A stretch of 64,000 nucleotides of DNA from Thermoleophilaceae bacterium. Lineage in GTDB: Bacteria; Actinomycetota; Thermoleophilia; Solirubrobacterales; Thermoleophilaceae. The notes beneath the pieces are model-generated. The model worked only from the letters and a program-made list of their open reading frames with translations, ran no database searches and was not told the origin of the DNA. The translations under genes were made by a program, and so were the position numbers. This document shows positions 27,991 through 36,437 of this stretch, piece after piece. How positions within the stretch are numbered: position 1 is the first letter of the stretch; the number at the start of each line of letters is the position of its first letter. The stretch is from the NCBI GenBank assembly GCA_040901445.1, contig JBBDYQ010000025.1, positions 125,925 to 189,924 of the forward strand, written 5' to 3'.

Positions 27991-29511
27991 TCAGTTCGTC
28001 GGGGACGGGATCGTATCCAGGCGATAGAGCTCGCCGTACTTCGCCGCCAGGTAGCGGCTGAGCGGGGCCGGGTCCAGCGGCCCGCCGGTCACGCGCTCGA
28101 TCGTCTCCGCCGGCGTGTACTTCGCGCCGTGGCGGTAGAGGTGCTCGCGCAGCCACTCGCCGAGCGCCGCGCAGTCGCCCTGCGCCAGCTCGGCGTCGAG
28201 GCCGGGCAGGTCCTCGCGGGCGCGCTCCCACACCTGCAGCGCGACCACGTTGCCGAGCGCGTAGGTGGGGAAGTAGCCGAACAGCCCGGCCGCCCAGTGC
28301 ACGTCCTGGAGCACGCCACGGGCGTCGTCGGGCACCTCCACCCCCAGCAGGCGGCGCATCCCCGCGTTCCACGCCTCCGGCAGGTCGGCCACGGCGAGGT
28401 CGCCGGAGATCAGCTCGCGTTCGAGCTCGAAGCGCAGGACCACGTGCAGGGAGTAGGTGACCTCGTCGGCCTCCACCCGGATGAGCGACGGGCTCACCGA
28501 GTTGAGCGAGCGGTAGAGGCCGTCCGCGTCCACGTCCGCCAGCGCCTCGGGGAACGCCTCCGCGAGCAGGCCGTGGAGGTAGCCAACGAACGGCCGGCCG
28601 CGGCCCACGACGTTCTCCCACAGCCGGCTCTGCGACTCGTCGAGCGCCATCGATGGCGAGCTGCCCAGCGGCGTGCGCCGCAGCGCGGGGTCGATGCCCT
28701 GCGCGTAGAGCCCGTGGCCCGTCTCGTGCAGCGCGGCGAGCACGGACTGGAGGTGGTCCTCGTCATAGCGGGTGGTGATGCGCACGTCGCCGGCGCCGAC
28801 CGGAGCCGAGAAGGGGTGGGCGGAGTCGTCGAGTCGCCAGGCCTGCTCGTTCCAGCCCAGCCGCCCCACGACCTCTCGCACGAGCGCCTGCTGGCGCTCG
28901 AGGGCGAAGGGGCCCGTGAGGCCCGGCGGGGTCGCGTCCCGCCCGGCGATGGCCGCGGCGAGCGGGACGAGGGCCTCGCGCAGATCGGCGAAGACCGCGG
29001 CCACCTCGGCGCCGGTCATGCCCTCCTCGTAGTCGTCGAGGAGCGCGTCGTAGGGCTCGGCGGCGTCGCCGAAGCAGGCCGCGTACTCCTGCGCCAGCGC
29101 GACGTTGCGCTCGAGCGCCGGGCGCAGCGCCGCGAAGTCGGACGCGTCGCGGGCCGCCTGCCAGGCCCGCTGCCCGAGCGACTCCGCGCGAGCCAGCTCG
29201 CCGGCGAGCTCGGCGGGCACGCGGCGGGCCTTCTCGTGGCGGCGGCGCGCCACGCGAACGAGGCTGGCGTCGTCGGAGTCGGGCGGGAGCGAGCCCTCGT
29301 GCTCGCGCAGCGACTCGAGCAGCTCGCCCAGCGCGGGGTCGGTGAAGCGCTCGTGCGCGAGCCGGCGCACCGTGGCCGTGGCCTCTGCGCGCGCCGCGGC
29401 TCCGCCGGCGGGCATCGTCGTCTCCTGGTCCCAGTCGAGCAGGGTGGCGGCCGAGCCTAGGTCCGATACCTCGCCAAGCCGCTCGCGGAGCTGTGTCAGG
29501 GCGTCCTGCAC
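27991..29511 (-). CDS. M32 carboxypeptidase (Taq type)
   Basis: A 506-residue, nearly all-helical metallocarboxypeptidase. The zinc motif is ALHETGHGLYAQG (HExxH, about residue 262), with the family's DWDQETTMPAGG near the N-terminus, MALDESQSRLWENVVGR (about 285-300, containing the third zinc ligand Glu) and RIEADEVTY-like IRVEADEVTYSLH. There is no signal peptide, so it acts in the cytosol on peptides. The start is GTG. The gene lies between ccr (22 bp downstream) and the MFS exporter gene, with all three transcribed leftward but without overlaps. Confidence 0.9.
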   Translation of the reverse strand: MQDALTQLRERLGEVSDLGSAATLLDWDQETTMPAGGAAARAEATATVRRLAHERFTDPALGELLESLREHEGSLPPDSDDASLVRVARRRHEKARRVPAELAGELARAESLGQRAWQAARDASDFAALRPALERNVALAQEYAACFGDAAEPYDALLDDYEEGMTGAEVAAVFADLREALVPLAAAIAGRDATPPGLTGPFALERQQALVREVVGRLGWNEQAWRLDDSAHPFSAPVGAGDVRITTRYDEDHLQSVLAALHETGHGLYAQGIDPALRRTPLGSSPSMALDESQSRLWENVVGRGRPFVGYLHGLLAEAFPEALADVDADGLYRSLNSVSPSLIRVEADEVTYSLHVVLRFELERELISGDLAVADLPEAWNAGMRRLLGVEVPDDARGVLQDVHWAAGLFGYFPTYALGNVVALQVWERAREDLPGLDAELAQGDCAALGEWLREHLYRHGAKYTPAETIERVTGGPLDPAPLSRYLAAKYGELYRLDTIPSPTN

Positions 29512-29543
29512 GCGCGCTTACGTTACGCGCCCGGCAGCCTCGG

Positions 29544-31115
29544 CTACACGCTGACGGCCTCGGCCTCCGCCGCGGCCTCGGGCCGCAGCGCCGGATCGGG
29601 CATCCGCGCGGGCAGCCGGGAGCCGATCAGCACCATGGCCGCCACCGCTCCGGCGGCGGCCACGGCGGTGGAGAGCGCGAGCGAGGTGGTGAGGGCATCG
29701 ATGAACGCCTCGCGCACCGCCCGCACGACCTCCGGCGGCGCCCCCGCCGCGGCGTTCACGCCCGAGCCGATGTTCGCGGCGAGCGCCTCGCGCTCGGCCT
29801 CCGAGACGCCGGTGCCCGCGAGCGCCTCGTCGAGGCGGTGGTGGCTCACCGACTGGAACAGCGCGCCGATGGCCGCAACGCCGAAGGTGCCGCCCACCAT
29901 CCGGCTCATCGACAGCACGCCCGAGGCCACCCCCGCCTTGCTGGCGTCCACCGCGTTCATGGCGGCCGTGGACATGGGGGACATCGTGAGCCCCATGCCG
30001 AGTCCCATGAGGATGAAGGAGGGCAGCAGCAGGCCATAGCCCGTGTCGACCGTGATGTGCGTCTGGATGAAGAGCGCCGTGGCGGTGAGCAGGAGGCCGG
30101 CCACGATCAGCGGGCGCGGCCCGATGCGGTCCGACAGCCGACCGGCGATGGGCGCGGCCACCATGATCACTAACGTGGACGGGAGGAAGCGGATGCCGGC
30201 CTCCAGCGCGTCGTAGCCGAGGATCGTCTGCATGTAGATCGCGGTGAAGAAGAACATCGCGAGCATCGCGAACGAGACGACGAACGCCACGACGTTGGCG
30301 CCCAGGAACGTGCGCGAGCGGAAGAACTCGAACTGCACCATCGGCACGCGCACCCGCGCCTCCGTGACGGCGAACGCGCCGAGGCCCAGCACGGCGACGG
30401 CCAGCAGCGCGACGATCTCGGGCGACCCCCAGCCCCAGGCGTTCCCCTCCACCAGCGCGAGCACGAGCGCGGTGAGGCCGGCCGACAGCGTGACGATGCC
30501 GGTGAAGTCCACCTTTCGCTCGATCGTCTCGTCGCGCGACTCGCGCGTGGCGAAGAGCGTGACCGCCACGGCACCGATGGCCACGGGGATGTTGAGGAAG
30601 AAGATCGCCCGCCAGGAGACGTACTCCGTGAGCGCGCCCCCCACCACCGGGCCGATGGCGAGCGCGAGCGCGGAGACGCCCGCCCACGTGCCGATGGCCT
30701 TGCCCCGCTCCTCGGGCGGAAAGGCGTTCGTGATGATCGAGAGGGTGCCGGGCATCATGAACGCGGCGCCGACGCCCTGGAGCGCGCGGCCGGCCACGAG
30801 CCAGCCCTGCGTGGGGGCGAGGCCGATGGCCGCGCTCGACGCCGCGAAGGCCACCACGCCGACGAGGAACATGCGGCGGCGCCCGAAGATGTCGCCCAGC
30901 CGGCCGCCCGTGACGAGCAGCACGGCGAACGTGAGCGTGTAGGCGTTGACCGTCCACTCGAGGCCCGCGAGCGACGCGCCCAGGTCCTCCTGGATCGAGG
31001 GCAGCGCGACGTTCACGACCGTGTTGTCGAGCATCACCATGAACAGGGCGAAGCACATGGCCGCGAGCGTCCACCAGCGCCTGTTGCCCTCGTTGAGGCG
31101 CAGGCGGTCGGTCAT
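29544..31115 (-). CDS. MFS multidrug efflux transporter, DHA2/EmrB type
   Basis: A 523-residue, 14-helix major facilitator of the drug:H+ antiporter-2 group. Motif A appears as GGRLGDIFGRRRMFLVG, motif C-like residues as AIGPVVGGALTEYVSWRAIFFLNIPV, and the N-terminal FMVMLDNTVVNVALP is the family hallmark. The last 60 residues hold an extra helix and a charged tail. Its start overlaps the stop of a marR gene by four bases, so it is probably the exporter controlled by that regulator. Substrates cannot be inferred. Confidence 0.9.
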   Translation of the reverse strand: MTDRLRLNEGNRRWWTLAAMCFALFMVMLDNTVVNVALPSIQEDLGASLAGLEWTVNAYTLTFAVLLVTGGRLGDIFGRRRMFLVGVVAFAASSAAIGLAPTQGWLVAGRALQGVGAAFMMPGTLSIITNAFPPEERGKAIGTWAGVSALALAIGPVVGGALTEYVSWRAIFFLNIPVAIGAVAVTLFATRESRDETIERKVDFTGIVTLSAGLTALVLALVEGNAWGWGSPEIVALLAVAVLGLGAFAVTEARVRVPMVQFEFFRSRTFLGANVVAFVVSFAMLAMFFFTAIYMQTILGYDALEAGIRFLPSTLVIMVAAPIAGRLSDRIGPRPLIVAGLLLTATALFIQTHITVDTGYGLLLPSFILMGLGMGLTMSPMSTAAMNAVDASKAGVASGVLSMSRMVGGTFGVAAIGALFQSVSHHRLDEALAGTGVSEAEREALAANIGSGVNAAAGAPPEVVRAVREAFIDALTTSLALSTAVAAAGAVAAMVLIGSRLPARMPDPALRPEAAAEAEAVSV

Positions 31116-31564
31116 CCGATCTCCTCACGCCGGCTGAGCAGCTCGAGTGCCTTGTCGAGGGCCCCGCGCTCGCGCGGGTCGAGCCCGGCGACGAACTCGT
31201 CGAGGCCCGCGAAGCGAAGCTGGACGAGGTCCTGCGCGAGCCTGCGCCCCTTGGCGCTGAGCGCCACGCGCTTCATGCGGCGATCGTCGGGGTCCTCGGT
31301 GCGCTTGACCAGGCCGCGCTGAACCAGGCCGTCAACCGCGCGGCTCACGGCCGGGAGGGAGAGCGCCAGGTGGTCGCCCGCCTCCTTGAGGGGGACCTCG
31401 CCGGCGTCCGACAGGACGTTGAGGAGCTTGACCTGGCTCAGCGAGAGCTCCAGGTCGTCGAGCGCCTGGAGGAAGTCGCGTCCGCACGTGGTCATGACGT
31501 AGCGGACGAAGGCGGCGAGCCGCTGGGTGGTGTCAGCTTGCGCGGGCGCAGTGGTTGCTTGCAT
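31112..31564 (-). CDS. MarR-family transcriptional regulator
   Basis: A 150-residue winged-helix regulator. The helix-turn-helix region reads VPLKEAGDHLALSLPAVSRAVDGLVQRGLV (about 58-87), followed by the wing EDPDDRRMKRVALSAKGR. N- and C-terminal helices form the dimer interface. A perfect 16-bp palindrome overlaps its start codon and is the probable site of autorepression; the ligand would be an exporter substrate or phenolic compound. It is cotranscribed with the MFS gene. Confidence 0.9.
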   Translation of the reverse strand: MQATTAPAQADTTQRLAAFVRYVMTTCGRDFLQALDDLELSLSQVKLLNVLSDAGEVPLKEAGDHLALSLPAVSRAVDGLVQRGLVKRTEDPDDRRMKRVALSAKGRRLAQDLVQLRFAGLDEFVAGLDPRERGALDKALELLSRREEIG

Positions 31565-31586: not shown

Positions 31587-32204
31587 TCAACCCCCGGGAA
31601 GGGCTCGGCTCACGAGCTCGCACACGGGTGTGCGCAGCGCCCTCAGGCCGTCCACGTCGCCCGCCGCGAGCTTGGCGGTGACCATCGAGCTGACCGCGGC
31701 CACCAGGGCCTCCACGGCAAAGCGCTCGGTGGCGTCCCGCGGGCCCAGCAGCCGCGACAGCCGCTCGACGAAGCGAGCCTGTGCCTCCGCGCGCCGCGCG
31801 AGCGCCGCCGGGCCCGCCGCGTAGACCTCCAGCAGGAACAGCCGGGCGAACGCGGGCTCGGCGGCGAGCGCGTCGAGATAGGCGCCGATGGCGCGATCGA
31901 AGCGTTCGAGCCGGTCGCCGCCCTCCGCCGGTGTGGCGGGCATGCCGGCCAGCACGAGCTCGACGGCGGTCTCGTACGCCGTCATGAAGCAGTCGGCCTT
32001 GGAGGAGAACTGCTCGTAGAAGGTCTCGCGCGACACGCCCGCGGAACGCAGCACGTCGGCCACGCTCGTCTGCGCGTAGCCCTTCTCGGCCATCGTCTCG
32101 GCCAGCGCCCGGAGCAGCCGGCTGCGCTGGGAGCCCACGACTTCGTCGCGGGTGAGACCGTGGCGCCCGCGGGGGAGGCGCTGCCCCGCCGGCGGGCTGC
32201 TCAT
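31587..32204 (-). CDS. TetR-family transcriptional regulator
   Basis: A 205-residue regulator. The N-terminal helix-turn-helix reads LLRALAETMAEKGYAQTSVADVLRSAGVSRETFYEQFSSKADCF (about 28-72), classic TetR; the remainder is an alpha-helical ligand and dimer domain. It is the last gene of a three-gene operon (CMD, SDR, TetR) joined by ATGA overlaps, so it probably represses its own operon and the divergent hydrolase through the inverted repeat at 33694. The ligand is unknown. Confidence 0.87.
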   Translation of the reverse strand: MSSPPAGQRLPRGRHGLTRDEVVGSQRSRLLRALAETMAEKGYAQTSVADVLRSAGVSRETFYEQFSSKADCFMTAYETAVELVLAGMPATPAEGGDRLERFDRAIGAYLDALAAEPAFARLFLLEVYAAGPAALARRAEAQARFVERLSRLLGPRDATERFAVEALVAAVSSMVTAKLAAGDVDGLRALRTPVCELVSRALPGG

Positions 32205-33058
32205 ACGCGTTCCCGCTGCTCCGTGGTGAACGGCGCCTCCTCGGTGCGCGCGATCTCGAGCGCCCTGACCAGGTTCCTGCGCACGACACGCTCGATGAGA
32301 GGCTGGACGAGCATGCGCAGCGGCAGGACGGCGGCCCCCCAGCCGGGCGAGGTGATCCGCCGCGAGCGGCGCCGGATGCCGCGCTCGATCGCGTCGATGG
32401 CGGGCTCGACGGGCGCCACGGGCAGGTGGCCGTGGCCGCCCACCGGCATCAGCGCGGCAGCCTTGGTGGCGAAGCCCCGCGAGGTCATGTCGGTGTCGAG
32501 CTCGGCGTAGTAGGCCACGCCCACGCGCGCCCCCGAGGGGCGCAGCTCGATGCGCAGCGTGTTGCCGAGCGCCTCGACCGCGGCCTTGGACGCGCTGTAG
32601 GCCCCCATCAGCGGGCCGTGGAGCGCGGCCGCCAGCGACGCCGTGAGCAGCACGTAGCCGCCGGGGTGCGACACGTGCGGGCCGGCCGCCCGCGCGAGGT
32701 AGTAGGTGCCGAGCAGGTTGACCGCGATGGTCTGCTCGAAGATCCGGGGGTCACCGCCCACGAGCGGGAGCTGGGCGCCGATGCCGGCGTTGGCCATGGC
32801 CACGTCCAGGCCGCCCAGCGCCTCGACGGCGGAGGCCACGGCCGTGTCCACCTGCTCGCGGTCGGCCACGTCGCACTCGAACCAGGGCGCGTCGCCGCAG
32901 CTTGCCGCCACATCGGCCATCAGCTCCGGCTCGATGCCCATGAGCGCCACGCGCGCCCCGCCCTCGTGAAGGCGCTTGGCGGTGAGGGCCCCGATGCCGC
33001 GGGCGGCTCCGGTGATCAGGACGCGGCGGCCCTCGAGGGGGGTCTCGGTGCGGCTCAT
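32201..33058 (-). CDS. short-chain dehydrogenase/reductase
   Basis: A 285-residue classical-type SDR with an extended C-terminus. The cofactor motif is TGAARGIG (about 15-22), the NAG motif is ANAGIGAQ, and the catalytic Ser is in LLTASLAAAL with Tyr and Lys in YSASK. Residues after about 215 (RRSRRITSPGWGAAVLPLRML) form a hydrophobic tail that may touch the membrane, as in many actinobacterial SDRs of the steroid or mycolate type. The start at 33058 overlaps the CMD stop. A longer reading upstream runs antisense through that gene and is not real. Confidence 0.87.
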   Translation of the reverse strand: MSRTETPLEGRRVLITGAARGIGALTAKRLHEGGARVALMGIEPELMADVAASCGDAPWFECDVADREQVDTAVASAVEALGGLDVAMANAGIGAQLPLVGGDPRIFEQTIAVNLLGTYYLARAAGPHVSHPGGYVLLTASLAAALHGPLMGAYSASKAAVEALGNTLRIELRPSGARVGVAYYAELDTDMTSRGFATKAAALMPVGGHGHLPVAPVEPAIDAIERGIRRRSRRITSPGWGAAVLPLRMLVQPLIERVVRRNLVRALEIARTEEAPFTTEQRERV

Positions 33059-33693
33059 CTGCTGCTCCTTCCCGCGCCGCTGCGGCGCCGTGCGATCGTG
33101 TGGAGCAGCCGCATGGCCCGCGGCTGCGAGCCCAGCGGCGCCGCGTCGGGCTGCACCGCGAGGGCGTTGAGGGTCATGGCGAGCATCTCGTAGTGGCCCA
33201 CGAGCATGCAGACCTCGATCAGCTCGGCGTCGGAGAGCCCGAGCCCGCGCAGCGAGGCCCACACGGGGTTGGAGATCGTGCGCTCGGCGTGCAGCTCGTC
33301 GGCTGCGCGCAGCAGCACCTCCCGGCGCGGTGACCAGCCGGGCGCGCCGGGCCCGCCGCGCACGCGCTCGATCTCCTCCCGGGTCAGCCCGGCGTCGGCG
33401 CCGAGGCGCTCGTGGTGATGCCACTCGTACTCGCAGCCGCAGTTGTGTGCCACGCGCAGGATCAGCAGCTCGCTGTCCTCCCTCGGGAGGAGCCCGCCGG
33501 GCATGAGCCTCCCGGCGAAGCGCAGCCACGGCCGGAAGAGGCCGCGGTGGCGGCCGAGCGTGGTGAAGATGTTGGGCGGCCCGCCGCCGGTGGCGGCCCC
33601 CAGCACGCGTGCGATGCCGGCGTTCAGCCGCCCGGTGTCGGCGTGCGAGCCCGGTGCGATGCGAGGGCTGCTCACGTGCGGTAGCGTACCCAT
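33055..33693 (-). CDS. carboxymuconolactone decarboxylase-family protein
   Basis: A 212-residue AhpD/CMD-like protein. It carries HNCGCEYEWHHHE (about 118-130), the CMD pattern of a Cys-containing helix followed by His, although spacing C-G-C differs from the C-x-x-C of AhpD. NPVWASLRGLGLSDAELIEVCMLVGHYEMLAM is the typical C-terminal half. Members act as peroxidase partners or decarboxylases; here, in an operon with an SDR and TetR regulator, a catabolic step is likely. ATG 33693 is chosen because the family fold starts soon after it, and the operator lies immediately upstream. Confidence 0.82.
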   Translation of the reverse strand: MGTLPHVSSPRIAPGSHADTGRLNAGIARVLGAATGGGPPNIFTTLGRHRGLFRPWLRFAGRLMPGGLLPREDSELLILRVAHNCGCEYEWHHHERLGADAGLTREEIERVRGGPGAPGWSPRREVLLRAADELHAERTISNPVWASLRGLGLSDAELIEVCMLVGHYEMLAMTLNALAVQPDAAPLGSQPRAMRLLHTIARRRSGAGRSSR

Positions 33694-33715
33694 TTGCGAA
33701 CGTAGCTGTTCGTAA
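33694..33715. promoter_or_regulatory. probable TetR operator between divergent starts
   Basis: TTGCGAAC (33694-33701), six bases, GTTCGTAA (33708-33715): an inverted repeat with one mismatch that fills the 24-bp gap between two divergent ATGs (33693 minus, 33718 plus). The TetR gene at the end of the leftward operon is the likely binder. There is no room for two ribosome binding sites, so both messages are probably leaderless. Confidence 0.65.
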
Positions 33716-33717
33716 AC

Positions 33718-35433
33718 ATGGGCAGCAGGGCACGAAACACGCTCGTTCTCCTCGTCGCGGTCGCCGCGGTGGCCCTGCCCGCGCCGGCGGCACGCGCGGC
33801 CCAGGTCACCCAGGACCTGCGCTTCACCGCGTCCGACGGCGTCTCCCTGCACGCCGCCGTCGGCGGCGAGGGCTCACTGGCCCCGCGGCCGCTGATCGTG
33901 GAGTTCAGCCCCTACGCGCCGGCGTGCTGCGTCTCCTACGCGGGCCCGGACTACAACTACGTCCAGGTGCACATCCGCGGCACGGGACGCAGCGACGGCG
34001 GCTTCGACACCCTCGGCGAGCGCACGCAATCGGACGTCGCCGAGTTCCTCGAGTGGGCCTGCGCGCAACCCTGGAGCGATGGGCGAATCGGGCTCTATGG
34101 GGCCTCGGCCAGCGCCATCGCGGTCTACCACAGCCTCCACCGCGAGTTGCCCTGCGTGGAGACCGCGGTGCTCTGGGCCGGCACGCACGAGCTCTACCGC
34201 GACCTGCTGTATGCGGGTGGAGTCCCCAACGTCGGGCCCGCCGCGGGCGTGGCCGCGCTCATCCTGGGGATGTACGCCGGCGGGCTGCCCGACCGTCTGC
34301 AGCGCGACCCGGCGTCGGTCCCCGAGAACCTGAACGGAGCGGTTGGCACGGTCACGGGCTACCTCGGCCACCCGACGATCGACTCCTACTGGCGCGAGCG
34401 CCAGGTGCGCGGCGACGCCAACGATCTGCCGATCCTCATGGTCACCGGCTTCTTCGACGTGGAGTCGCGCGGGCCGTTCGAGGCGTTCCGCGAGCTGCGC
34501 GGCGACGGCGCGCACCTGATGGTGATCGGGGCGCACGACGGCGTCCCGGCGGGTACGGGCGGCGAGGCGGGCGAGCGCCGGCGCTGGTACGACCGCCACC
34601 TGCGCGGCATCGCCAACGGCATCGAGGACGAGCCGCGCGTGAAGCTCTGGCTGGCCGACGGCGATCGCGAGGACCTGCTGGCGGGCAGCTTCGTGCGCGC
34701 CGACGGCGACGACTGGCCGATCCCCGGCACGGGCTGGGAGGCCCTGGCGCTCGGCCCCGGAGGCTCGCTGGGGCTCGACCCGCCGGAGGCCTCCACGACG
34801 CAGGCCTACCCGGCGCTCCCGTCGCTGCCCTTCAGCACCGACCCGCACACCACGGCGACCCTCTTCGGCTTCGGCACGCCCGAGTTCTCGGGCAACGCGC
34901 TGGCCAACGCGTTCCCCGCCCTGACCGAGATGGGGATCGTGGAGTCGCTCGGCCTCTCGTTCAGCACCGAGCCGCTGCGCGAGGACGTGCTCTCAGCGGG
35001 GCCGGCGAGCCTCGAGCTGCGGCTGGCGAGCACCGCCCCGGAGACCGACATCTACGCCGTGCTCTCCGACGTCTGGCCTGACGGCAGCGCGCACCCGGTG
35101 GCCACGGGGCGCCTGCGCAGCTCGTTCCCGGAGATCGACCCCGCCCGCTCGCTCACCGACCCGGAGACCGGCGCGATCGTCCAGCCCTACGGACGCTTCG
35201 AGCGCAAGACGCCCGCTGCGCCGGGGCAGGAGCGCCTCTACCACGTCGAGTTCTGGCCGGTCGGCAACCGGTTCAAGCGCGGCCATCGGCTGCGGCTGCA
35301 CGTGATCGGCGCGTCCGCGTACCACCTGCCGGGCGTCCCGGCGATCAACACCGTGCGCGTGGGCGGCCCCGGGGGATCACGGCTGCTGCTGCCCGTGCTG
35401 CCGGGCAGCGACCTGGGCGCCGCCCTGCCCTAG
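33718..35433 (+). CDS. secreted CocE/NonD-type hydrolase
   Basis: A 571-residue enzyme with a signal peptide (about 1-27, ending ARA). The core has VQVHIRGTGRSDGGFD and the nucleophile loop IGLYGASASAIAVYH (about residue 125), with the late acid and base in VTGFFDVES and VIGAHDG. The C-terminal jelly-roll (ELRLASTAPETDIYAVLSDVWPDG) marks the CocE/PepX-C family. It acts outside the cell on esters or acyl amino acids. It is divergent from the CMD-SDR-TetR operon, sharing the operator region, so regulation by the TetR protein is likely. It converges on the next gene with a four-base overlap. Confidence 0.87.
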   Translation: MGSRARNTLVLLVAVAAVALPAPAARAAQVTQDLRFTASDGVSLHAAVGGEGSLAPRPLIVEFSPYAPACCVSYAGPDYNYVQVHIRGTGRSDGGFDTLGERTQSDVAEFLEWACAQPWSDGRIGLYGASASAIAVYHSLHRELPCVETAVLWAGTHELYRDLLYAGGVPNVGPAAGVAALILGMYAGGLPDRLQRDPASVPENLNGAVGTVTGYLGHPTIDSYWRERQVRGDANDLPILMVTGFFDVESRGPFEAFRELRGDGAHLMVIGAHDGVPAGTGGEAGERRRWYDRHLRGIANGIEDEPRVKLWLADGDREDLLAGSFVRADGDDWPIPGTGWEALALGPGGSLGLDPPEASTTQAYPALPSLPFSTDPHTTATLFGFGTPEFSGNALANAFPALTEMGIVESLGLSFSTEPLREDVLSAGPASLELRLASTAPETDIYAVLSDVWPDGSAHPVATGRLRSSFPEIDPARSLTDPETGAIVQPYGRFERKTPAAPGQERLYHVEFWPVGNRFKRGHRLRLHVIGASAYHLPGVPAINTVRVGGPGGSRLLLPVLPGSDLGAALP

Positions 35434-36320
35434 ACGGCACGCGGAAGCAGCCTGGTGAGCTCGGCGAGCATCTGCGCGGGGTGTTCGAAGACGTCGTCCC
35501 AGGTGTAGCGGCGGTGCTGGTCGCCTCTGGCGTGGGCTTCGCGTTCTCGCTTGCGGTCCTGTTCCCAGGCGTGGCGGGTGTTGTGGTAGCGGTAGGAGTC
35601 GAGCTCGACGGTGAGCTTCTGCTCTGGCCAGCGGCAGTCGACGCGTTTGCTGCCGGCGGGTTTGTTGGTGTGGGCGGGGAGGGGGAGGCCGGCTTCGCGA
35701 AGGCGTGCCAGGAACTTGCGTTCCAGGGCACTCAGCGAGACGTGGATGTCCCCGCCCATGATGCGTTTGAGCTTGCCGGCGCCGGGCGCGTTGGGCCTGC
35801 GGTCCAGCACGCTCTGGACGTGCCGCGGGGTGGTCTTGTAGCGGACGCCCGCCTCGTGGCAGGCGAGGGCCAGGTCGTCCTCGTCGAGGTCGGCGGCGAT
35901 GTCTGCCAGCGTGCGCGCCACCGTGGTGATCGGGATCCCAGTGACCGTCATGCGCTCGATGCGGCCCGACCGGCGCGTCCGGACGCCCTTGACCCGCCGC
36001 TGTGAGGGCGCCGTGACCTCGGGCAGTGGTGGAGGGCGCTTGATCAGCCCGAGCAGATACGCCGCCGCCAGCCCGCTCAACACCGCGCCCGGACCGCACG
36101 CCTTCACCGCCGCCATGTAGCGCGCCCGCACGCCGGGCGCTCGGTGCCCCACCCTGTAGACGCCGGGGAACTCGCGGATCAGCGCGCCCCTGCGCACCCG
36201 GCGCCGTATCTGGTCGCGGCTCATGCCGGCTTCGAGCAGCTCTGCCCGGGTGACCACACCCTCCGCGCGGCCCGCCAATCGCGCGATTCTCTGCTCCACC
36301 GTGGTCGATCGGGTGCGCAT
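35430..36320 (-). CDS. AbiEi-like N-terminus with DUF559-type nuclease domain
   Basis: A 296-residue protein of a type common in actinobacteria. The N-terminal part (about 15-80) is a winged-helix domain like that of AbiEi antitoxins: GVVTRAELLEAGMSRDQIRRRVRRGALIREFPGVYRVG. The C-terminal part resembles DUF559/Vsr-like nucleases: VDCRWPEQKLTVELDSYRYHNT, then EQDRKREREA and YTWDDVFEHP. These proteins are often annotated as lone type IV antitoxins; no AbiEii toxin is adjacent, so a toxin-antitoxin role is unproven. Start 36320 is chosen; an in-frame extension to 36425 runs through a 21-bp tandem repeat and adds MHPGPRR units. Confidence 0.75.
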   Translation of the reverse strand: MRTRSTTVEQRIARLAGRAEGVVTRAELLEAGMSRDQIRRRVRRGALIREFPGVYRVGHRAPGVRARYMAAVKACGPGAVLSGLAAAYLLGLIKRPPPLPEVTAPSQRRVKGVRTRRSGRIERMTVTGIPITTVARTLADIAADLDEDDLALACHEAGVRYKTTPRHVQSVLDRRPNAPGAGKLKRIMGGDIHVSLSALERKFLARLREAGLPLPAHTNKPAGSKRVDCRWPEQKLTVELDSYRYHNTRHAWEQDRKREREAHARGDQHRRYTWDDVFEHPAQMLAELTRLLPRAV

Positions 36321-36369
36321 ACGACCCCCAAAGCACCACAGTGACCGAATTCGCCCCCCGGAGGCCGGC

Positions 36370-36432
36370 GGGCCCGGATGCATCCGCCGCGGGCCCGGAT
36401 GCATCCGCCGCGGGCCCGGATGCATCCGCCGC
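36370..36432. repeat. three perfect 21-bp tandem repeats
   Basis: Three identical 21-bp units (36370-36390, 36391-36411, 36412-36432), each with the palindrome ATGCAT, lie between the AbiEi/DUF559-like gene and the end of the next minus-strand gene. Read on the minus strand they form open repeats of MHPGPRR. Copy number may vary. Confidence 0.9.
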
Positions 36433-36437
36433 GGGCG

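What the first reader, a model, noticed from the sequence alone, without database searches (positions are those of the whole stretch)
33691..33720. Operator filling a 24-bp gap between divergent start codons
ATGs at 33693 (minus) and 33718 (plus) are separated only by TTGCGAAC-N6-GTTCGTAA. Ribosome binding sites do not fit, so both messages must be leaderless or start codons lie elsewhere. A TetR protein encoded in the leftward operon would silence both sides by binding one site.
Basis: partly seen in the sequence, partly recalled or inferred. Interest (0 to 1): 0.5.

Follow-up and report, generated by a model that had tools for sequence, protein, structure and literature searches.

The report
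TetR repressor site controlling secreted esterase
A short mirror-image DNA sequence between two oppositely read gene groups is very probably the landing site of a repressor protein encoded next door, and the same site sits in front of the same genes in related soil bacteria; it is a well-supported but fairly ordinary switch with one unusual promoter detail.

Summary
The palindrome is real: TTTGCGAAC-GTAGCT-GTTCGTAAA, window 33693-33716. It is very probably the operator of the TetR protein encoded in the leftward operon (CMD-SDR-TetR). At up to 3 mismatches it occurs at one other place in this 3.5 Mb genome, in front of a second CocE/NonD hydrolase gene. Elsewhere its core precedes the same genes: 32 of 32 SDR-TetR operons (mostly Nocardia), and CocE orthologues in 6 of the 9 other genomes of the order that have one; in a seventh it heads a CMD-SDR-CocE operon. 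At 51 of 57 hand-listed gene sides the site is followed by TANNNT and, 5-8 nt on, a start codon: a leaderless promoter.

A -10 inside the operator could still serve ATG 33693. The right side does not fit: nothing but one base lies between operator and ATG 33718. Its best -10, TAGCGT 33682-33687, overlaps the left one (TAGCGTA), suggesting one bidirectional promoter shut by one TetR dimer. TetR binding, transcription starts and inducer are inferred, not shown. New member of a known kind.

The parts
33693..33716 (.). operator TTTGCGAACGTAGCTGTTCGTAAA, proposed TetR binding site
33683..33688 (-). -10 of the leftward promoter, TACGCT, 7 nt before GTG 33675
   Evidence: fits the layout of 51 of 57 listed sides; score 8.49
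33682..33687 (+). candidate -10 of the rightward promoter, TAGCGT, overlapping the leftward one as TAGCGTA (33682-33688)
   Evidence: best-scoring position on the plus strand between 33640 and 33717; inferred
33055..33675 (-).
   Evidence: PF02627 51.2 bits against cut-off 23; conservation begins after this codon
32201..33058 (-). short-chain dehydrogenase/reductase gene
   Evidence: PF00106 135.2 bits against 26.6
31587..32204 (-). TetR-family regulator gene, proposed repressor
   Evidence: PF00440 46 bits against 24
33718..35433 (+). CocE/NonD-family hydrolase gene, N-terminus looks like a signal peptide (by eye)
   Evidence: TIGR00976 158.4 bits against 66.3; S130, D247, H273 invariant in 10 orthologues

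Best explanation
Window 33693-33716 is the operator of the TetR-family protein encoded at 31587-32204. A TetR dimer bound there represses its own operon (CMD-SDR-tetR, leftward) and the CocE/NonD hydrolase gene (rightward). The leftward promoter has TACGCT (33688-33683) as -10 and makes a leaderless message starting at GTG 33675; the operator covers about -17 to -41 of it. The rightward message most likely starts near 33694 from the overlapping TAGCGT (33682-33687), so the same dimer covers its start and first 23 nt or so. A small molecule, perhaps made from the hydrolase's substrate, would release TetR and induce all four genes. Shown by sequence: conservation of the operator, gene content, layout of the left promoter. 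Inferred: binding, repression, start sites, the right promoter, the inducer.
For: Only two places in the genome at up to 3 mismatches, both just before CocE-family genes. 32 of 32 SDR-TetR operons carry the site at 11 of 14 or better, 30 of 32 at 12 or better, against 105 and 13 of 2593 control windows. CocE orthologues in 6 of 9 other order genomes have it directly upstream, in most of them far from tetR; in G451 one site separates tetR from CMD-SDR-CocE. GCGAACANNNNTGTTCGY is found in 8 of 19 order genomes with a close TetR and 3 of 159 scanned others (Fisher 4.9e-7). Layout operator-TANNNT-N5-8-start at 51 of 57 listed sides, 48 of them opening a frame of 100 aa or more.
Against: No binding, expression or start-site data. 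9 of 19 TetR neighbourhoods fetched from the class sample show no site near tetR, CMD or SDR, and only 3 of 42 TetR genes without SDR or CMD before them have one. 8 of the 19 places found lie beside none of the four gene types at recognisable identity. G450 has the site before CocE but only a 45% TetR match. The window's site lacks one consensus base (one search does not match it). The right gene lacks the usual -10, as do 5 of 9 CocE sides. For the left start, TACGTT in the operator plus 5 nt to ATG 33693 scores slightly higher than TACGCT (8.93 against 8.49).
Confidence: 0.85

Rival explanations
1. Operator of the same TetR, but the right gene has its own promoter and is not driven by the overlapping -10; for example a weak -10 in the operator core, or a start site further up inside the CMD gene.
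For: In relatives CocE has its own -10 between operator and ATG in 3 of 6 cases, with GAGGCT in a fourth. In G451 and G269 the two divergent promoters have separate -10 elements.
Against: No such -10 lies between operator and ATG 33718 here; TAGCTG at 33703 is not among the six best plus-strand positions, TAGCGT 33682 is the best.
Confidence: 0.45
2. The left gene starts at the reader's ATG 33693, leaderless from TACGTT (33704-33699) inside the operator.
For: TACGTT scores 8.93 and lies 5 nt before ATG 33693. One other side of 57 (L041) also has an in-operator TANNNT leading to a long frame.
Against: 51 of 57 sides put the -10 after the operator; the first six codons are not conserved and L039 and L187 begin at the GTG.
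Confidence: 0.17
3. The site belongs to another regulator of G000, for example LexA (half-site CGAAC) or another TetR, not to the TetR of this operon.
For: The half-site resembles the Gram-positive SOS box (recalled); G000 has 6 further TetR matches at E <= 1e-15.
Against: Spacing is 6, not the 4 of the SOS box (recalled); a search for TCGAAC-N4-GTTCGA returns other places, not this one. The site travels with SDR-TetR operons and with genomes that have this TetR.
Confidence: 0.08
4. The palindrome is a chance inverted repeat without function.
For: 48 stretches in the 64 kb have equal 9+6+9 symmetry.
Against: The sequence recurs before the same genes across genera and only twice in the genome.
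Confidence: 0.02

Closest known systems
KstR regulon of mycobacteria (PMC1995591, passages)
   Same: Actinobacterial TetR-type repressor that controls itself and unlinked genes through a palindrome with AAC/GTT half-sites close to the -10, often between divergent genes.
   Different: KstR site is TAGAAC-N2-GTTCTA (TnnAACnnGTTnnA); here GCGAAC-N6-GTTCGY. Targets here are CMD, SDR and CocE/NonD hydrolases.
AcrR at the PacrA/acrR bidirectional promoter of E. coli (PMC12825309, abstract and passages)
   Same: TetR-family auto-repressor acting at a bidirectional promoter that serves its own gene and a divergent operon.
   Different: There the promoter is shown by experiment; here the shared -10 is read from sequence, the left message is leaderless, and tetR is the third gene of its operon.
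Leaderless TANNNT promoters of Actinobacteria (PMC3160421 and PMC3898074, passages)
   Same: Left promoter: TANNNT whose first T lies 13 bp before the start codon.
   Different: Here it is coupled to a fixed operator position. TGN stands before the -10 in 38 of 51 fitting sides, most of them Nocardia, against 7% of TANNNT promoters in M. tuberculosis; the window has GGG.

Membership tests
TetR-family autoregulated repressor system | TetR_N DNA-binding domain above the curated cut-off | tested here: met
   PF00440 46 bits against 24
TetR-family autoregulated repressor system | palindromic operator in front of its own operon, conserved in relatives | tested here: met
   32 of 32 SDR-TetR operons; but 9 of 19 class-sample neighbourhoods without a site
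TetR-family autoregulated repressor system | binding of the protein to the operator and release by a ligand | not testable with these tools
   no binding data
Leaderless gene (CMD side) | TANNNT about 12 bp before the start codon | tested here: met
   TACGCT, first T 13 bp before GTG 33675
Leaderless gene (CocE side) | TANNNT about 12 bp before the start codon | tested here: not met
   no TANNNT in place before ATG 33718
Bidirectional promoter | -11A and -7T reciprocally paired, nominal starts 18 bp apart | tested here: met
   TAGCGTA 33682-33688; nominal starts 33676 and 33694. Any TANNNT has the paired A and T; only T33682 is extra
Bidirectional promoter | two mapped transcription starts | not testable with these tools
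   no RNA data
KstR regulon | site TnnAACnnGTTnnA | tested here: not met
   spacing between AAC and GTT is 6
LexA SOS box | CGAAC-N4-GTTCG (recalled) | tested here: not met
   spacing 6; not returned
CocE/NonD hydrolase | family profile above the curated cut-off and conserved Ser, Asp, His | tested here: met
   TIGR00976 158.4 against 66.3; S130, D247, H273 invariant in 10 (triad role recalled)

The most novel reading that the evidence does not exclude
One seven-base symmetric -10 (TAGCGTA, 33682-33688) fires both ways, giving a leaderless CMD-SDR-tetR message and a CocE message whose leader of about 24 nt is almost exactly the operator, so that a single TetR dimer blocks the upstream promoter region in one direction and the start site in the other. 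The window would have lost the separate CocE -10 that three of six relatives keep between operator and ATG (a fourth has GAGGCT).
Probability: 0.35. Interest if true: 0.55.

Novelty: new member of a known kind. Interest (0 to 1): 0.38.

Why it matters
It turns an isolated palindrome into a testable regulon: a TetR clade with an LPRGxHxLxR signature near the N-terminus, an operator consensus GCGAACA-N4-TGTTCGY, and a target set (CMD, SDR, CocE/NonD hydrolases) seen from Solirubrobacterales to Nocardia with a recurrent operator/-10/start-codon spacing. It corrects a likely start codon and offers a compact test case for repression of a bidirectional promoter with a leaderless side. Ten paper searches were made in a library of open PubMed Central papers (two of them, 50 and 80, returned nothing); none of the titles and abstract openings listed describes this regulon. 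Most subscription papers are not in that library.

Tried and rejected
LexA SOS box and KstR site: set aside on spacing. RNA hairpin in the CocE leader: folding 33693-33745 gave z = -1.13 and a structure that does not pair the two arms; not pursued. Sigma-70-type scan of 33400-34000: 0 promoters, 0 terminators. The loose pattern GCGAACN6GTTCGY matches 125 of 232 order genomes and is uninformative; RCGAACN6GTTCGY at up to 1 mismatch gives 33 forward places in the own genome against 10 for the control, too noisy to extend the regulon. The G369 match lies inside an open reading frame and is taken as chance. G370 carries six copies of CGAACACCGC/GCGGTGTTCG type, taken as a repeat. Solved structures: the TetR profile has only weak hits (best 4e-14), no help for the ligand. 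No structure was predicted.

Mended on checking: an earlier count of 3 of 165 for genomes without a close TetR wrongly included six genomes that one search had not sampled; it is 3 of 159, Fisher 4.9e-7. In-operator -10 elements and the length of the frames opened were tested only then.

Full report
OBSERVATION. The symmetric unit is 24 bp (33693-33716). Equal symmetry occurs 48 times in the 64 kb, so symmetry alone says little. The sequence is rare: once in the window at up to 3 mismatches (shuffle mean 0.01), two places in 3.54 Mb. With R/Y at inner positions and up to one mismatch, 2 of 399 genomes of a class sample match: this one, and G369, whose site lies inside an open reading frame.

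GENES. Leftward: CMD-family protein, SDR, TetR, neighbours overlapping by 4 bp; then MarR and a DHA2-type transporter. Rightward: CocE/NonD-family hydrolase whose N-terminus looks like a signal peptide by eye. The second genomic site (C25:2169-2192) ends 13 nt before an ATG that opens another CocE-family protein, about 30% identical to the first.

THE SITE IN OTHER GENOMES. TetR matches at E <= 1e-15 occur in 126 of 399 class genomes. I fetched the neighbourhoods of 19 of the listed TetR matches, plus the G369 region. 10 of 19 have a site scoring 11 or more of 14 just before tetR, CMD or SDR; 9 of 19 do not. One search found 371 relatives among named genomes and kept the best 80, some on contigs also. 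Where an SDR gene immediately precedes tetR, 32 of 32 have a site scoring at least 11, 30 of 32 at least 12; control windows of the same loci: 105 and 13 of 2593. Other classes at 12 or more: CMD-TetR 1 of 4, SDR-CMD-TetR 0 of 1 (its contig begins there), SDR-SDR-CMD-TetR 1 of 1, TetR with neither before it 3 of 42. Two loci of that last class, L082 and L097, have the site before a CMD gene elsewhere in the locus, and L110 has one further upstream. So the site goes with the target genes rather than with every relative of this TetR. Most of the 32 are Nocardia and not independent.

CocE. Orthologues at E <= 1e-60 occur in 10 of 232 order genomes, this one included. Of the 9 others, 6 (L151, L152, L153, L154, L156, L157) have a site scoring 11-14 directly upstream of CocE; L157 scores 11 and is weak alone. 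In five of these six genomes a close TetR lies elsewhere (in G056 on the same contig, about 10 kb away); in G450 the best TetR match is 45% (3e-29; an 82% complete draft). In G451 one site separates tetR from a CMD-SDR-CocE operon. G012 and G027 have CocE close to CMD without a site, and only distant TetR matches (3e-9, 9e-13). G005 has a further site beside a distant CocE-family gene (27%).

ASSOCIATION. GCGAACANNNNTGTTCGY, exact, occurs in 12 of 232 order genomes. Taking E <= 5e-45 as a close TetR, it is present in 8 of 19 such genomes and in 3 of 159 scanned others (Fisher 4.9e-7). Left out: 54 genomes not scanned for TetR, one of which (G433) has the site beside a 48% TetR with CMD and SDR. 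The genomes are related, so the probability is indicative. Of the 19 places found, 11 lie beside tetR, CMD, SDR or CocE (one of these CocE-like at 27%), 8 beside other genes. This genome's own site lacks one consensus base and does not match the exact pattern.

PROMOTER LAYOUT. Of 57 operator-gene sides listed by hand because a site had been seen there (35 SDR, 9 CocE, 7 TetR, 6 CMD), 51 have TANNNT within 16 nt of the operator and ATG or GTG 5-8 nt after it; shuffling the downstream bases gives 0.61. In 48 of the 51 that codon opens a frame of 100 aa or more; in L112, L121 and L125 it opens 14, 14 and 8 codons. Exceptions to the layout: the window's right side, L047 (TetR), and CocE in L152, L156, L157 and L002; CocE sides fit in 4 of 9. 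Sites of a few TetR-only loci (such as L103, L105, L116) and those first seen were not in the list. The layout is the leaderless one of Actinobacteria (PMC3160421, PMC3898074; passages).

LEFT SIDE. It fits: operator-TGGG-TACGCT-ACCGCAC-GTG 33675. Conservation of CMD begins after that GTG, and L039 and L187 start at GTG. Against it: TACGTT at 33704-33699, inside the operator, lies 5 nt before ATG 33693 and scores 8.93 against 8.49 for TACGCT. Among the 57 sides such an in-operator -10 leading to a long frame is found at two, this one and L041.

RIGHT SIDE. One base lies between operator and ATG 33718. Relatives' CocE genes start 14-17 nt after the operator in four of six cases, three of them with TANNNT and one with GAGGCT between. 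The best -10 on the plus strand from 33640 to 33717 is TAGCGT 33682-33687. It overlaps the left -10 as TAGCGTA, one of two TANNNTA in 64 kb. By the geometry of bidirectional promoters (PMC10268837, passages) nominal starts are 33676 and 33694, 18 bp apart. Caution: any TANNNT is half symmetric, and only T33682 is extra. Among the 51 fitting sides only the window's has A after the hexamer. AcrR at PacrA/acrR is a precedent for a TetR-family repressor at a bidirectional promoter (PMC12825309, abstract and passages).

FUNCTION. S130, D247 and H273 are invariant in 10 CocE orthologues, so an active hydrolase is likely. SDR and the CMD-family protein suggest further use of a released product; substrate and inducer are unknown and this step is inference.

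VERDICT. A conserved TetR operator with a well-predicted leaderless promoter on the left and a possible shared promoter on the right: new member of a known kind.

Noticed in passing
window 36368-36436: Tandem array of a 21-bp unit, 3.3 perfect copies, at the start of an ORF (35430-36425, minus) with AbiEi_4 and below-cut-off REase_MTES_1575 matches; the real start of that gene may lie further in.
   Followed up: no
window 29544-31564, minus strand: MarR regulator and DHA2-type MFS transporter genes overlap by 4 bp and begin 22 bp after tetR, so they may be co-transcribed with CMD-SDR-tetR.
   Followed up: no
window 29511-29525: The only other TANNNTA of the window; on the minus strand TAACGT lies 8 nt before GTG 29511, the start of a 506-aa ORF, a possible further leaderless gene.
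   Followed up: no
L041, L043, L050 (upstream of tetR): Two operator copies about 19 bp apart in tandem before tetR in three genomes of one genus.
   Followed up: partly
L112, L121, L125 (Nocardia): The leaderless start codon after the operator opens only 14, 14 and 8 codons ahead of the SDR gene, like a small upstream reading frame.
   Followed up: partly
L180 / G216:C347:4675: A consensus site beside a long ORF that looks to the eye like a secreted penicillin-acylase-type protein, a possible further target (family name recalled, not searched).
   Followed up: no
L244 / G005:C120:9388: A consensus site between a distant CocE-family gene (27%) and a divergent gene with TACACT 8 nt before its ATG.
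   Followed up: partly
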